A model generated the notes under the pieces. That model did not search any database. It worked only from the letters and a program-made list of their open reading frames with translations, and was not told where the DNA came from. A stretch of DNA of 34,921 bases from Pseudomonadota bacterium. GTDB taxonomy: Bacteria > Bdellovibrionota_B > Oligoflexia > Oligoflexales > CAIYRB01. A program made the position numbers and the translations under genes. Below, piece by piece: positions 1 through 5,895 of this stretch. The stretch is taken from the NCBI GenBank assembly GCA_026390435.1, contig JAPLFY010000095.1, positions 1 through 34,921 of the forward strand, in the 5' to 3' direction. Position 1 is the first letter of the stretch, and the number at the start of each line of letters is the position of its first letter.

Positions 1-51
1 ACCCTCCTGCACACTTTGGCCAGATTCAAAGCAATCCGTGATTATTTTTCA

Positions 52-120
52 AAAGCATCAAACGCGGCACTCTGCAGAGTGAGACCAGCGCTCGCTAGGC
101 GAGTTGGCTGGCGATGCTTT
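52..120. repeat. Three-way-junction palindrome at the 3' end of the fibre gene
   Basis: The outer arms AAAGCATC (52-59) and GATGCTTT (113-120) are perfect inverted repeats. They enclose the 14-bp palindrome CACTCTGCAGAGTG (68-81) and a second compound hairpin made of CCAGC (85-89), CTCGC (91-95), GCGAG (99-103) and GCTGG (107-111). The structure begins where the fibre protein loses its repeat homology and supplies its stop codon. It could be a REP-like or mobile-element end, or an unusual transcription end. Confidence 0.5.
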
Positions 121-3100
121 CCTTACATTGCCGACATTGCCGTTGGTATTGTTCACTGTCATCCAATTGCGTTGCCACGCCGTTTCACTGCCGGCACCGG
201 AGCGGAAATAAGTGTAGCCGCCTACACCCGACTTCGAGTCGATGTAATTGCTTCCATCGGAGTGGGCTAAAAAGCTTAATCCGTTCAGACCGGTCGAGGT
301 CGAGCCATTGTCGTCACCGACCTTGACATAGGACGTACCACCCACTTTCGCTACATGGAAAGCGGAGGCCGGAGACGTAGTGCCGATGCCGACGTTGCCT
401 GTCCCTGTTGGGAGTAGTGCTATCGATGTGTTAGCGCTTACACCCTCCAACGTAACTAATCCAGTGCCACCGTAGCTGAGCTGGCCATTTGAGGCAGCCG
501 AACCATAACGAACTACACCTGCAACGTCGAGCTTAGCTGCTGGAGCTGTAGTCCCAATCCCGACATTGCCACCCGAATAAACGAAGTTAGCATTACCAGC
601 TAGAGCTCCACCACTGTTGTACTGAATCTGGTTAGTTGCACCCGCTGCAGCTGCAGCTGCCGCGGGCGCAGCCCATGTGCCATCACCACGCAAGAACTTA
701 ACGTTATCCGTTGCAGCAGGACCAGGGACGGCTCCAGCCGTACCAGCGGTTGTACCGTTGGCACCACCCATAGCCGGGAGGTCTCCGGCCACTAGCGCCC
801 GGAATGAGGGCGCGCCAGAGCCACTTGTCGGGCCAGCGAAAACAGAATTTGCGGTTGTTGACGAGACGCCGGTACCACCATTGGCAACGGCCAAAGTGCC
901 TGAACTTATAAGAGCTGCGCTATGTGCCGGGAGATCCGCAGCAGTTAAAGAGGTGCCAGAAGTTATGCGTCCCTTCGCATCGTAAGTAACTTTAGTTGAG
1001 GTCCCTGCGATAGCGACCGCAGCAAGCGTTGCCGCTGCCGATCCAGGGCCCGTGGCCGTGACATCGCCGGTGAGAGCTGTGATGTAGTTACCCGCTGCTT
1101 GTTTAGTACTGAACGTGGTCCAATCAGCCGAGCTTAGGTAGCCGTTTGTCGTGCCGTTTGCTTGCGACATCGAAATAACTGGCGTTGATGTACCGGTGGC
1201 TACTGAGATTGGCGCCGTACCAGTGACGTTTGTTACGCTTCCGGCAGCAGCAGATACCCAGCTTAATGTCCCTGAACCGTTGGTTGAGAGTACTTGGCCA
1301 GATGAGCCGTTGGTGCTCGGTAGTTCCCAGGTGAGTGACGACCCCAGAGTGTCTGGAGCTTTCAGTGCGACTGAGTTAGTAGAGCCTTTGTCGTTAAGAA
1401 CAAGTTTATTTGCCGTGGTGCTATTACCTAGAATGGTGACATTGCCAGCTACTGTATGGGCACCGGAGTTAACGATGCCAGTGGTGTTGATCGTAGTTGA
1501 GCCGCCAATGGTAGAGGCACCGTTGATGGTAGCGGCACTCAAAGTTTTGTTGGTCAGAGTTTCCGTCGCATCGCGAGTGACCACCACGCCCGAGGTCGGG
1601 AAGCTTGCGGTGGAGTTTACGCCGGTACCTCCGTTAGCCGCTGCAAGAGTGCCGGAAGTGATGATGGCTGCGCTCAGTGGCGGAATATCCGATGCTATTA
1701 ATGACGTACCTGAGGTCACTCGACCTTTCACGTCGTAAGTCACTTTGGTTGAGGTCCCTGCGATAGCGACTGCAGCAAGCGTTGCCGCAGCAGACCCGGG
1801 GCCGGTGGCCGTGATGTCACCAGTGAGGGCGGTGATATAGTTACCGGCTGATTGTTTATTATTGAAGGTCGTCCAGTCAGCCGAGCTTAGGTAGCCGTTG
1901 GTCGTGCCGTTTGCTTGCGACATGGAAATCACTGGAGTTGATGTACCGGTAGCGACCGAGATTGGAGCCGTACCCGTGACGTTTGTTACGCTCCCGATGG
2001 CAGCAGATACCCAGCTTAATGTCCCTGAACCGTTGGTTGAGAGTACTTGGCCAGATGAGCCGTTGGTGCTTGGTAATTCCCAAGTTAGGGACGACGCCAG
2101 AGTGTCTGGAGCTTTCAGTGCGACTGAGTTAGTCGAGCCTTTGTCGTTGAGAACTAGTTTGTTTGCGGTCGTGCTATTACCAATAATGGTGAGGTTACCC
2201 GCCACTGCATGAGCACCGGAGTTAACGGTACCAGTGGTGTTAATCGTAGTCGAACCGCTAATATTCGATGCGCCATTGATCACGGCTGCTGACAAAGTTT
2301 TGTTGGTCAGAGTCTCTGTCGCGTCACGAGTAACCACTACGCCCGAGGTCGGGAAGGTAGCGGTTGAATTCACGCCCGTACCGCCGTTAGCTGCTGCAAG
2401 AGTGCCGGAAGTGATGATGGCTGCACTCAGTGGCGGGATATCCGCAGCTGTTAGCGTAGTACCAGAGCTTACACGGCCGTAAGCGTCAGTGGTGACTTTG
2501 GCGTAGTTGCCGGCGGTGCCTACTATCCCCAGACTTACCGTAGCCGTGCCGCTTGACGTTGCTACCGCTATGCCTGAGCCCTGAGCAACAGCGCTGACTT
2601 TCCCGTTAAATGCTGCGAAATCAGCATTAGATAACAAACCAGCAGTCACACTTGCTGCAGACGCCATCGGAATATTAAGCGTATGTGCATTACTCGCCGA
2701 CGACCAAGTCGGTGAAGTGCCCGAGGTGCCTGGAACGGCCAAGGTCTGCGTGTTGCCAGTTTGTCCGTTGAGATTGCTCAGTCCTGAACCGGCGGCTCCA
2801 AGTGCAATAGCGGCAGACCCGTTCCAATACTTAATCTGATTAGTACTCGAATTAAACCACGTTTTGCCGACATCGCCCGCCGTGAGTCCTGATGGGTCGG
2901 TGGCGTTTGTGCTGAGAGCTAAAGTTTTGGACGCTGCCATTTGGATGTTGCCGGAGTTGGTGAGGTCGTTCGCCCCGAGGTTCAGGGCGCCGCTCACGGT
3001 GTCGCCAGCTTTATTAAGTGGCGTGTAACCAAGTGATGAAGTGATGTCACCTATAGCAATCGTCCCAACAGTAACACTACCGCCCACGGTAGTTTGTTTC

Positions 3101-5895
3101 AGGTACTGACCTGCACCACCGGTGCTGCTGAGATTTGCGCCGGTACCGCCGTTAGCTGCTGCAAGAGTGCCAGAAGTAATGATGGCTGCACTCAGTGGCG
3201 GAATATCCGCTGCTGTTAGAGACGTACCAGAGGTCACTCGACCTTTCACGTCGTAAGTAACTTTGGTTGAGGTCCCTGCGATAGCGACGGCGGCAAGTGT
3301 AGCCGCTGCCGATCCAGGGCCGGTGGCCGTGACATCGCCGGTGAGGGCAGTGATATAGCTACCGGCCGCTTGCTTACTATTAAATGTGGTCCAATCAGCC
3401 GAGCTTAGGTAGCCGTTTGTCGTGCCGTTTGCTTGCGATATGGAAATCACTGGAGTCGAGGTACCGGTTGCAACTGAAATTGGTGACGTACCCGTGACGT
3501 TTGTTACGCTCCCGACTGCAGCGGATACCCAGCTCAGTGTCCCTGAGCCGTTGGTGGATAGTACTTGCGCGGATGAGCCGTTGGTACTCGGCAGCTCCCA
3601 AGTAAGTGATGAAGCCAGAGTGTCTGGAGCTTTCAGTGCAACTGAGTTAGTTGAGCCTTTGTCGTTGAGAACTAGTTTATTGGCGGTCGTGCTGTTACCA
3701 AGAATGGTGACGTTGCCGGCCACTGTTTGGGCCCCTGAGTTTACGGTGCCAGTGGTGTTGATCGTAGTTGAGCCGCCAATGCTCGATGCGCCGTTAATCG
3801 TGGCAGCAGTTAGTGTTTTATTGGACAGTGTTTCCGTCGCATCACGAGTGACCACCACGCCCGAGGTCGGGAAAGTGGCGGTGGAGTTAACGCCCGTACC
3901 GCCGTTCGCAACGGAAAGTTGGCCAGTGGTAATTTTACTTGCATCGAGGCCTGGGATATCGCCGGCACTAAGAGCGCCACCACTTACTACCTGGCCCTGA
4001 GCATTAGTCTGGACTTTAGTGTAAGTTCCAGCTGTGCCCACGGAGCTTAAACTTACGGTAGCCGTTCCACTTGCTATCGAAACAGATACGCCAGTCCCCG
4101 CAGCGACTCCGCCGAGTTTGCTGCCAAAGCTTGCAAATTCACTGTTGGAGATGAGGCCAGCCGTAACTCCAGTGGCAGCAGCCAGCGGAATATTTAGCGT
4201 GTGTACCGCTCCCGTAGAGCTGAACAGTGGACTGTTACCACTAGTACCGGTAGCAAAGGTTTGTGTGTTTCCCGTCAGTCCATTTAAATTCGTCAGCCCT
4301 GCGCCGGACACTCCGAGCGACTGCACTGCGCTACCGGTCCAGTATTTGATTTGACTGGTCGAGCTGTTAAACCAGGTTTTACCTTTGTCAGGAGACGTCG
4401 CCCCTGTGCTGTCTAGCAGGGCCAACATGGTTGCTTCGGACGTGTTGTCAAATATTCCAAGCCCTAGAGTCTTAGCTGTGCTGATTGTGACGTTGCCAGC
4501 GTTGATAATTGCCTGGCCGTTCATCTCGAGCGCGCCGGACATTGAATCACCGGCTTTATTAAGCGGAGTGAAACCGAGAGCGTTTTGTTTACCGTTGAAG
4601 GTCGTCCAATCGGTGCCACTCAAGTAACCACTCGCGCTACCACTCGCCTGCGCAAGTGAGATTTGACCACTTGAAATACCGTAACTTAGTGGCGCATTAG
4701 CCGAGATCACCCCTCGTGCCCGCGCGTCCGTGTAATAAAGATTTGTACCGCTCTCGGCAACGACTGCGGTGGTCAAGCTTTGCCAGGCTTTGTTGCCAGA
4801 CAAAAACTGATTTGATGTCCCTCCCGAGGGTAGAGCTGGTTCTTTACTTGCCAGATCTGTAACTAAACCTTGGACTTTGTTCTGCGCAATTGCTGCACCG
4901 CTGGCAATGTCCGCATCCACGATGGGAGCGGCACTTTGCGCCGCGGTGATGCGTCCCGTAGAATCAACGGTGATGTTAGCACGCGTATAAGTGCCGGGGC
5001 TTACCGAAGTATTGGCTAGGCTGATCGTTCCACCGTTGATGATCGTTCCACCATTTAGACCGGATCCTGCGTTAAAATTTACCGAAGAGAGCGGCGTAAA
5101 TCCAAGTGCTCCGGTGATATCCGCCGCAGCAAGTGACATCCCCTGCGTCACACGCCCCTGAGCATCGGTCACGACTTTGACGTAGGTTCCTGCAGTGCCA
5201 ACATTCGGCAAGCTAGTTGACCCAGATGAGGTGATCGATTGCGGCACCCACTGCCCACCGATAAATTGCAACACCTGGCCAGAACTCGGCTGTGTGCTCG
5301 CAATGTTTTGACCCTGCAAGGAAGTGACTGCGGGACTACCCCAAGTTAGCCGACCGCTCGTATCTTTAGTCAAAAACTGATTGTTGGCTGGCGCCCCACC
5401 ATTAACAGCGAGGCCAAGGTTGCCGTTACTATCGAACGCGAGAGTTTTATTATCCACTGGGATGCGCAGGGCGTAGGGTACGAAACTATACTGCTGGCGT
5501 GGATAAGTTTTACCAGCTGCGGTGATCTCGATATAAACCGGACTACTAAGGTCACCGTAGATTTGCTGAACCTGATCGGCGCTCAGTTCGAGTGGTAAAC
5601 TAAACACACCGCTATTCAGATCCACTGCCGTGAACTCGATCGGAGCAGTGAGAGTGCTACCACTGACAGCAGCGTTCCAAAACTTTACCGAAATATCGAC
5701 GGGGCCGTCTACAGGGGCACCCGATGCCTGCGTGAGACGCCCACTATATGAAACGGAAAAAGGCGCAGCGTGAGCTTGCGAAACGGAGATTAGGCTCGCC
5801 GCAAATGCCAAACTCAGCACGTATAACCGGGAGCCGATTGAGGCCCTTGGCTGGCACAAAGCGAGTTGTTTCAAAGTGGACATAAGCGGACTCAT
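58..5895 (-). CDS. Giant secreted tail-fibre-like repeat protein
   Basis: A 1945-residue protein with an N-terminal signal peptide (hydrophobic stretch about residues 24-40, cleavage near SQAHA). Residues 44-145 form a lead domain of the kind that starts YSGRLTQ and ends VPYALRIP, seen in secreted repeat proteins of Bdellovibrionota-like bacteria. The rest is Gly/Ser/Thr/Ala-rich with phage tail-fibre-like phrases (GYLSSADWTTF, YTPLNKAGD, ANGGTGV). Two GNVGIGTT motifs lie near residues 1775 and 1835, as in trimeric fibre stalks. It is probably a surface-exposed or released fibrous adhesin. The expected C-terminal chaperone or trimerisation domain is absent: after a third GNVG the reading frame enters about 20 unrelated residues and stops inside a structured DNA segment. 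The first ATG is preferred because AGGAAAGG lies upstream and the next in-frame ATG has no ribosome site. The exact role is unknown. Confidence 0.85.
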   Translation of the reverse strand: MSPLMSTLKQLALCQPRASIGSRLYVLSLAFAASLISVSQAHAAPFSVSYSGRLTQASGAPVDGPVDISVKFWNAAVSGSTLTAPIEFTAVDLNSGVFSLPLELSADQVQQIYGDLSSPVYIEITAAGKTYPRQQYSFVPYALRIPVDNKTLAFDSNGNLGLAVNGGAPANNQFLTKDTSGRLTWGSPAVTSLQGQNIASTQPSSGQVLQFIGGQWVPQSITSSGSTSLPNVGTAGTYVKVVTDAQGRVTQGMSLAAADITGALGFTPLSSVNFNAGSGLNGGTIINGGTISLANTSVSPGTYTRANITVDSTGRITAAQSAAPIVDADIASGAAIAQNKVQGLVTDLASKEPALPSGGTSNQFLSGNKAWQSLTTAVVAESGTNLYYTDARARGVISANAPLSYGISSGQISLAQASGSASGYLSGTDWTTFNGKQNALGFTPLNKAGDSMSGALEMNGQAIINAGNVTISTAKTLGLGIFDNTSEATMLALLDSTGATSPDKGKTWFNSSTSQIKYWTGSAVQSLGVSGAGLTNLNGLTGNTQTFATGTSGNSPLFSSTGAVHTLNIPLAAATGVTAGLISNSEFASFGSKLGGVAAGTGVSVSIASGTATVSLSSVGTAGTYTKVQTNAQGQVVSGGALSAGDIPGLDASKITTGQLSVANGGTGVNSTATFPTSGVVVTRDATETLSNKTLTAATINGASSIGGSTTINTTGTVNSGAQTVAGNVTILGNSTTANKLVLNDKGSTNSVALKAPDTLASSLTWELPSTNGSSAQVLSTNGSGTLSWVSAAVGSVTNVTGTSPISVATGTSTPVISISQANGTTNGYLSSADWTTFNSKQAAGSYITALTGDVTATGPGSAAATLAAVAIAGTSTKVTYDVKGRVTSGTSLTAADIPPLSAAIITSGTLAAANGGTGANLSSTGGAGQYLKQTTVGGSVTVGTIAIGDITSSLGYTPLNKAGDTVSGALNLGANDLTNSGNIQMAASKTLALSTNATDPSGLTAGDVGKTWFNSSTNQIKYWNGSAAIALGAAGSGLSNLNGQTGNTQTLAVPGTSGTSPTWSSASNAHTLNIPMASAASVTAGLLSNADFAAFNGKVSAVAQGSGIAVATSSGTATVSLGIVGTAGNYAKVTTDAYGRVSSGTTLTAADIPPLSAAIITSGTLAAANGGTGVNSTATFPTSGVVVTRDATETLTNKTLSAAVINGASNISGSTTINTTGTVNSGAHAVAGNLTIIGNSTTANKLVLNDKGSTNSVALKAPDTLASSLTWELPSTNGSSGQVLSTNGSGTLSWVSAAIGSVTNVTGTAPISVATGTSTPVISMSQANGTTNGYLSSADWTTFNNKQSAGNYITALTGDITATGPGSAAATLAAVAIAGTSTKVTYDVKGRVTSGTSLIASDIPPLSAAIITSGTLAAANGGTGVNSTASFPTSGVVVTRDATETLTNKTLSAATINGASTIGGSTTINTTGIVNSGAHTVAGNVTILGNSTTANKLVLNDKGSTNSVALKAPDTLGSSLTWELPSTNGSSGQVLSTNGSGTLSWVSAAAGSVTNVTGTAPISVATGTSTPVISMSQANGTTNGYLSSADWTTFSTKQAAGNYITALTGDVTATGPGSAAATLAAVAIAGTSTKVTYDAKGRITSGTSLTAADLPAHSAALISSGTLAVANGGTGVSSTTANSVFAGPTSGSGAPSFRALVAGDLPAMGGANGTTAGTAGAVPGPAATDNVKFLRGDGTWAAPAAAAAAAGATNQIQYNSGGALAGNANFVYSGGNVGIGTTAPAAKLDVAGVVRYGSAASNGQLSYGGTGLVTLEGVSANTSIALLPTGTGNVGIGTTSPASAFHVAKVGGTSYVKVGDDNGSTSTGLNGLSFLAHSDGSNYIDSKSGVGGYTYFRSGAGSETAWQRNWMTVNNTNGNVGNVRKASPANSPSERWSHSAECRV
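888..1640 (-). repeat. 753-bp internal repeat, copy C (fibre gene)
   Basis: This is the most C-terminal of three long copies inside the fibre gene. Matching anchors sit exactly 753 bp from copy B: CGAGGTCGGG at 1591 versus 2344, and CGTGCCGTTTGCTTGCGA at 1150 versus 1903. The unit encodes about 251 residues. Its edges are approximate because copies B and C are directly adjacent. Confidence 0.75.
1641..2393 (-). repeat. 753-bp internal repeat, copy B (fibre gene)
   Basis: Tandem with copy C at a 753-bp period (anchors at 1903 and 2344). Differences between copies are mostly synonymous, which suggests duplication followed by drift or selection for protein sequence. Edges are approximate. Confidence 0.75.
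3159..3911 (-). repeat. 753-bp internal repeat, copy A (fibre gene)
   Basis: Offset from copy B by 1518 bp at both anchors (3421 and 3862). The 2394-3158 spacer between A and B encodes a different module (KAGDTVSGAL to VSSGTTL). That module resembles the one N-terminal to copy A (about 3912-4570, starting KAGDSMSGAL). The protein order is therefore module K, A, K', B, C. Confidence 0.7.

What the first reader, a model, noticed from the sequence alone, without database searches (positions are those of the whole stretch)
52..120. Three-way-junction element replaces the fibre protein C-terminus
Outer arms AAAGCATC/GATGCTTT enclose two independent hairpins, a clover-like fold. Fibre homology ends at the outer arm: after GNVGNVR come about 20 unrelated residues, and the stop TGA lies at the arm's edge. 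The final stalk and chaperone part expected for such proteins is missing. This looks like a structured element that landed in and truncated the gene.
Basis: partly seen in the sequence, partly recalled or inferred. Interest (0 to 1): 0.52.

Follow-up and report, generated by a model that had tools for sequence, protein, structure and literature searches.

The report
Guide-RNA insertion sequence in fibre gene
The folded stretch at the cut-off end of this fibre gene is the left end of a jumping gene whose own guide RNA appears to steer it to a motif repeated many times in the fibre (adhesin) genes of these Bdellovibrio-related bacteria.

Summary
Window 1-130 (minus strand) is the left end of a ~1.63-kb IS110/IS1111-type insertion sequence (IS); the contig stops inside it. 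The 69-bp three-way fold is a domain of that end, not the whole element. Window 1-141 is identical to the start of contig G000:C67; a same-genus genome (G004) has five copies at 96-98%, one complete: 249-bp left end, 341-aa DEDD transposase, 351-bp right end. The right end carries two loops whose 8-nt guides match both halves of the target, AACGTC-GG-GATTGG, DNA for the fibre motif N-V-G-I-G (both guides: 0 of 20,000 shuffles). Six of seven left-end copies sit in fibre-like sequence; the seventh is in a methylase gene whose flanks rejoin to an intact frame. Each adds the same 23-residue tail and stop. The IS is 96-98% alike between hosts whose one compared gene is 68% alike, and was not found in the nearest relative: recent horizontal spread. 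In relatives the left-end arms pair with the transposase ribosome site, so I infer a translation-limiting leader. New member of a known kind; the programmed adhesin-motif target is the interesting part.

The parts
1..130 (-). Left end (LE) of the IS110/IS1111-type insertion sequence, cut by the contig end; transposase and right end lie beyond position 1
   Evidence: identical to start of G000:C67; 96-98% to five G004 copies, one leading into a full IS with transposase
124..130 (-). terminal extension CAATGTA of the left end
   Evidence: boundary fixed by comparing 7 LE and 7 RE copies and by the rejoined hsdM frame; a like motif (ACAA, any base, GTA) lies at the LE of 22 of 35 relatives examined
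115..123 (-). subterminal inverted repeat AGGAAAGCA (partner TGCTTTCCT in the right end)
   Evidence: sequence comparison of LE and RE copies
52..120 (-). three-way-junction domain: outer arms 52-59/113-120 and two hairpins
   Evidence: all 5 variable columns among 7 copies are unpaired positions; model hits only this IS
131..132 (-). GG core dinucleotide shared by target and IS junctions
   Evidence: hsdM flanks rejoin to an intact 496-aa frame when GG is counted once
133..138 (-). left half of the target, AATGTC, bound (inferred) by the left target guide
58..129 (-). 23 IS-encoded codons and the TGA stop fused to the fibre frame
131..5895 (-). truncated secreted fibre gene (phage-tail-fibre-like, repeated modules); C-terminal tip missing
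   Evidence: PHROG tail fiber protein 7.3e-12

Best explanation
Positions 1-130 are the left end of an IS110-family, IS1111-type insertion sequence that inserted into the fibre gene at the GG of the codons for N-V-G-I-G. Shown from sequence: multiple near-identical copies, DEDD transposase, defined ends, 2-bp core, the same target in the copies, truncation of the fibre. Inferred: an RNA from the right end pairs with both target strands (AAYGTCGG and GGGATTGG) and with the donor ends, and the transposase joins the circularised IS into the target. As the target motif is asymmetric and coding, the IS lands co-oriented with the fibre gene and in the same frame, so each hit fibre gets the same 23-residue tail and loses its tip. 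Inferred with less certainty: the folded left end, including the three-way junction, is the 5' leader of the transposase mRNA and keeps transposase low, e.g. against read-through from the fibre promoter.
For: Copies. Transposase: PF01548 9.6e-16 and PF02371 4.2e-8, both above cut-off; NCBIfam transpos_IS110 5.3e-33 but below its cut-off (114.6 of 140). LE target half: AACGTCGG in 5 of 7 copies, AATGTCGG in 2 of 7; RE target half GGGATTGG in 6 of 7, two mismatches in the hsdM copy. Guides LTG AACGTCGG and RTG CCAATCCC in the right-end noncoding region, 26 nt apart; both present in 0 of 20,000 dinucleotide shuffles, each alone in 131 and 126. Donor guide LDG ACAGACGG (58 of 20,000); RDG ACATTGC, 7 nt, seen. 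hsdM flanks rejoin to one open frame. Uninterrupted homologues. Horizontal spread: IS 96-98% against 68% for a host gene; the nearest relative G002 (93% at that gene) had no LE match below E 0.15 and no transposase or RE match at the thresholds used. Leader: 15 relatives, own arms pair better than swapped arms, 0 of 5,000 permutations as good.
Against: No transposase or complete element is assembled in the window's own genome (0 matches), so activity there is inferred. The right donor guide fails the strict test that demands both core bases (4 nt only; 17,252 of 20,000 shuffles do as well). RNA production, pairing and transposition are untested. The subterminal repeat is 9 bp without a gap, shorter than the usual 11-13. 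In two of the six fibre-like copies (G004:C60 and C117) the frame before the junction is open for only 59 and 81 codons, so those are fibre fragments, already broken or newly broken. Leader role: the ribosome-site region was less accessible than the shuffle mean in 12 of 15 leaders but clearly so (at most 3 of 60 shuffles as low) in only 6 of 15; this IS's three-way junction does not itself cover the ribosome site.
Confidence: 0.94

Rival explanations
1. A native structured 3' element or alternative C-terminus of this fibre family, e.g. an invertible or shuffling tip cassette, with no transposon.
For: Nearly the same 23-residue tail on all six fibre-like copies; fibre modules in these genomes are mosaic.
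Against: A copy lies antisense in an unrelated hsdM gene; a transposase and a defined right end follow; an uninterrupted homologue lacks it.
Confidence: 0.02
2. The IS is a programmed fibre switch: insertion and excision at the motif turn individual adhesins off and on, to the host's benefit.
For: The target is a common repeat of the adhesin set (15, 33 and 30 exact sites in G000, G002 and G004); IS492 of this family is known for precise excision (recalled; a title seen in the reference list of PMC11208160).
Against: For ISEc11 (IS1111 type) the rejoined target was not detected when circles formed (PMC11187229, section 7); one copy is in hsdM; no evidence of excision here.
Confidence: 0.1
3. 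The three-way junction acts as folded DNA in end recognition by the transposase rather than as an mRNA leader.
For: Its 5' arm overlaps the subterminal repeat (115-123).
Against: The DNA fold is not better than shuffles; in relatives the partner arm sits at the start codon of the transposase, as expected of RNA; ISPpu9 has a 244-nt leader that likely hides its ribosome site (PMC8450116: abstract and passages seen).
Confidence: 0.15
4. Assembly chimera: the shared 141 bp is an artefact.
For: Both own-genome copies start exactly at contig ends with 141 identical bases, typical of a k-mer break (inference).
Against: The junction recurs in another assembly, inside contigs, in two copies (G004:C60 and C13).
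Confidence: 0.02

Closest known systems
IS1111-type insertion sequences with downstream seekRNA (ISEc11, ISPa11, ISKpn4; PMC11187229)
   Same: DEDD transposase; longer noncoding region downstream of the gene; top-strand complement precedes bottom-strand match in the RNA; subterminal inverted repeats; fixed target and orientation
   Different: 9-bp ungapped repeat; 15 nt between the repeats at the inferred circle junction; left end is also long (249 bp); target is a protein-coding adhesin motif
IS621 / IS110-group bridge RNA (PMC11208160)
   Same: two loops, one for target and one for donor, with a dinucleotide core
   Different: guide RNA is in the right end here, not the left; order of guides reversed
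ISPpu9 of Pseudomonas putida (PMC8450116)
   Same: targets a sequence repeated many times in the genome; 244-nt folded leader that likely hides the ribosome site; RNA encoded downstream of tnp
   Different: target is REP, extragenic; an antisense sRNA was not looked for here
MAT fibres of Bdellovibrio bacteriovorus (PMC10769870; passages seen)
   Same: signal peptide (by eye here), phage-fibre-like repeats, S74 chaperone at some C-termini
   Different: no homology test against the Bd proteins was made here

Membership tests
IS110 family (DEDD transposase) | PF01548 plus PF02371 domains | tested here: met
   both above gathering score; tested on the G004:C13 copy, not on the window genome, which has no assembled transposase
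IS110 family (DEDD transposase) | NCBIfam transpos_IS110 curated cut-off (a naming threshold, not a biological definition) | tested here: not met
   114.6 of 140 bits, E 5.3e-33; divergent member
IS1111 group | longer noncoding region downstream of tnp | tested here: met
   351 bp right end against 249 bp left end in G004:C13; left end is unusually long too
IS1111 group | seekRNA: top-strand complement 5' of bottom-strand match | tested here: met
   CCAATCCC then AACGTCGG
IS1111 group | subterminal inverted repeats, usually 11-13 bp (7-17 bp in PMC11208160) | tested here: met
   9 bp perfect, about 12 with one gap; within the wider range only
IS1111 group | terminal extensions of 7 (or 6) and 3 bp | tested here: inconclusive
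   left CAATGTA is 7; right ACAGAC is 6, depending on where repeat and core are drawn
IS1111 group | transposase groups with IS1111 in a tree | not tested
seekRNA / bridge RNA | RNA is made, co-purifies with transposase and is needed for transposition | not testable with these tools
   needs bench work
Integron attC or IS200/IS605-type ends | own recombinase type (tyrosine integrase or HUH) and end structure | tested here: not met
   element encodes a DEDD transposase

The most novel reading that the evidence does not exclude
A guide-RNA insertion sequence has settled on the coding repeat of an adhesin family as its niche: the motif is present in tens of copies, the hits are co-oriented and tolerable because fibres are redundant, and recurrent insertion (perhaps also excision) reshapes the adhesin repertoire of predator-related bacteria.
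Probability: 0.2. Interest if true: 0.72.

Novelty: new member of a known kind. Interest (0 to 1): 0.43.

Why it matters
Known IS1111-type elements are described at repeats such as REP and attC sites (PMC11187229); here the RNA-specified target is a repeated protein-coding motif of surface fibres, in a phylum where such fibres are tied to prey recognition (PMC10769870). It gives a natural, multi-copy test of guide-to-target matching, including one off-type insertion with two mismatches, and a case where transposon targeting and adhesin evolution are coupled. I found no report of this in the searches, which cover only the held open-access library.

Tried and rejected
Considered and dropped: attC-like recombination site, IS200/IS605 end, REP, group II intron, DGR element (the transposase and ends settle it). 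Rfam: nothing. Phage and plasmid collections: no match to window 1-141; the plasmid protein search gave only distant IS110 transposases, 25-30% identity in the 15 rows listed of 140 records. No solved structure matched by sequence. Scans of genome and viral contigs with the single transposase found nothing; with alignment A1 the genome scan gave 39 relatives, mostly Bdellovibrionota. A junction promoter in the inferred circle: best score 7 of 12, not convincing. The sigma-70 scan was at chance. Guides of the JABFRR relatives against their flanks: looked at by eye, not tested.

Rows dropped before counts: of 39 relatives, 35 were examined for the left-end motif and 22 had it; one search was given 16, of which 15 had the motif and were counted (7 with the motif were left out as near-copies); one search used 14 of those 15 plus this IS. 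In one search five of the seven far halves and one near half were scanned.

Full report
What was checked. The arms, the two hairpins, the stop at the arm's edge and the loss of fibre homology are all as described. The fold is better than chance as RNA of the gene strand (z -2.94, 0 of 200 shuffles), not as DNA.

It is a repeat. Window 1-141 is identical to the first 141 bases of contig C67 of the same genome, then the two diverge. Of the 56 genomes in the relatives search only one other, G004 of the same genus, has strong matches: five copies, 96-98%. In two of them the sequence continues past the window's edge, in G004:C13 into an open frame of 341 aa, which is an IS110-family DEDD transposase (PF01548 9.6e-16, PF02371 4.2e-8; PHROG transposase 2e-31; NCBIfam IS110 5.3e-33 but below cut-off). 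After the gene come 351 noncoding bases and then fibre sequence resumes, GIGTTSPATPLDVNG.

Ends and target. Right-end copies: six in G004, one in G000. Aligning seven left and seven right ends gives left end [target]-GG-CAATGTAAGGAAAGCA and right end TGCTTTCCTACAGAC-GG-[target] (ACAGCA in one copy). Left target half: AACGTCGG in 5 of 7 and AATGTCGG in 2 of 7 (the two from the window's genome); right target half GGGATTGG in 6 of 7. The seventh right end, C61, and the left end C81 flank a type I methylase gene (hsdM, named by eye from the proteins), in antisense; joining the flanks with GG counted once restores a 496-aa frame through the site. That fixes the ends, shows a clean insertion with a 2-bp core, and shows that DNA sequence, not fibre protein, is recognised.

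Guides. In the right-end noncoding region of the C61 copy, CCAATCCC (complement of GGGATTGG) and AACGTCGG (same as the left half) flank a hairpin, starts 26 nt apart; a second loop with the same hairpin has ACATTGC and ACAGACGG, matching the two donor ends, also 26 nt apart. Both target guides occur together in 0 of 20,000 shuffles; the strict test failed for the right donor guide (4 nt with both core bases). The C13 copy has AATGTCGG as left guide, the form of the target in the window. Order and place agree with the IS1111 seekRNA rule (PMC11187229: abstract, passages, sections 7, 9 and 13 read) and with bridge RNAs in right ends of IS1111 elements (PMC11208160, passages).

Target supply. The loose motif GGNAAYGTNGGNATNGGNAC occurs 53 times in G000, 140 in G004, 93 in G002, and 30, 11 and 8 in G005, G003 and G001, and 0 in G006, reversed control 0 throughout. 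The exact site AAYGTCGGGATTGG: 15, 30, 33, 7, 5, 1 and 0 in the same order, control 0. I did not check gene by gene that all sites are in fibre genes.

Effect on the gene. In 7 of 7 left-end copies the frame reads GNVG, then NVRKASPANS and so on, 23 residues, stop, with up to two substitutions from the window's tail; six are fibre-like, C81 is the antisense of hsdM. In C60 and C117 the frame is open for only 59 and 81 codons before the junction. The far halves start at GIGTT (5 of 7), GIGAT (C71) or in hsdM (C61); of five far halves scanned one, G004:C73, has the S74 chaperone (PF13884 3.8e-14). Uninterrupted relatives: G004:C13 has a 65% homologue of the window's last 75 residues that reads on GNVGIGTTGPGSKL. 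G002:C97 has an uninterrupted gene that joins homologues of the C67 left flank and the C91 right flank, with one module of about 77 residues fewer, so C67 and C91 are probably the two sides of one insertion. The right partner of the window was not found.

Spread. A 1,863-bp gene of the window is 93% identical in G002 and 68% (over 1.36 kb) in G004, yet the IS is 96-98% identical to G004 and was not found in G002. One gene is a small sample, but the contrast is large. The genome belongs with Bdellovibrionota: a family member, G006, contains the contig titled Pseudobacteriovorax antillogorgiicola MAG (sequence contained exactly; lineage).

The folded end. Among the seven copies five columns of the 69 vary, all unpaired (48 paired, 21 unpaired; 0.0018 if columns were independent, but they are about three events). 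The model of the fold finds no relative. Of the 39 relatives, 22 of 35 examined have a like left terminus, such as ACAATGTAAGAAAGC, and in most of the 15 relatives' leaders folded the arm next to the terminus pairs with the bases just before the transposase start codon, by the ribosome site. Swapping arms between the 15 leaders counted weakens pairing; 0 of 5,000 permutations match. Accessibility of the ribosome-site region was below the shuffle mean in 12 of 15 and at most 3 of 60 in 6 of 15; L073, L082 and L110 went the other way. In the present IS the ribosome site is paired with a nearer strand, GGGTTGCGCTTC, and the three-way junction stands as a separate domain upstream. ISPpu9 gives the precedent (PMC8450116: abstract and passages). 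I infer a translation-limiting leader; what the three-way junction adds is not shown.

Verdict. A transposon insertion, correctly suspected, of a known kind with an unusual and well-supported target.

Noticed in passing
L064 (G004:C71) 2013-2304: Degenerate copy: right end only, with one of the two guide loops lost between identical hairpins (ATGACCTTCGAGGTCCTA), next to genes that look like an antitoxin/PIN-toxin pair (by eye).
   Followed up: partly
window 866-3909: Three modules of about 770 bp, 84% alike, inside the fibre gene (866-1638, 1619-2391, 3138-3909).
   Followed up: no
right ends of all 7 copies: The last ~25 codons of the IS are open in frame with the downstream fibre half (LVALAASKK...CFFTCFPTD then GIGTT); a start inside the IS could in principle express the stranded tip without a signal peptide.
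   Followed up: no
L075, L077, L078, L087, L092, L096, L099, L101, L110 (JABFRR01, Bacteriovoracaceae MAG): Nine copies of a related IS, transposase 30-41% identical, inserted between ...TTTGA and GATG... sequences; loop sequences differ from those of this IS, as expected of reprogrammed guides.
   Followed up: partly
L045 6731-7753: The transposase also scores to NCBIfam TIGR_Tas_endo (6.1e-9, below cut-off), the RNA-guided TIGR-Tas relatives.
   Followed up: no
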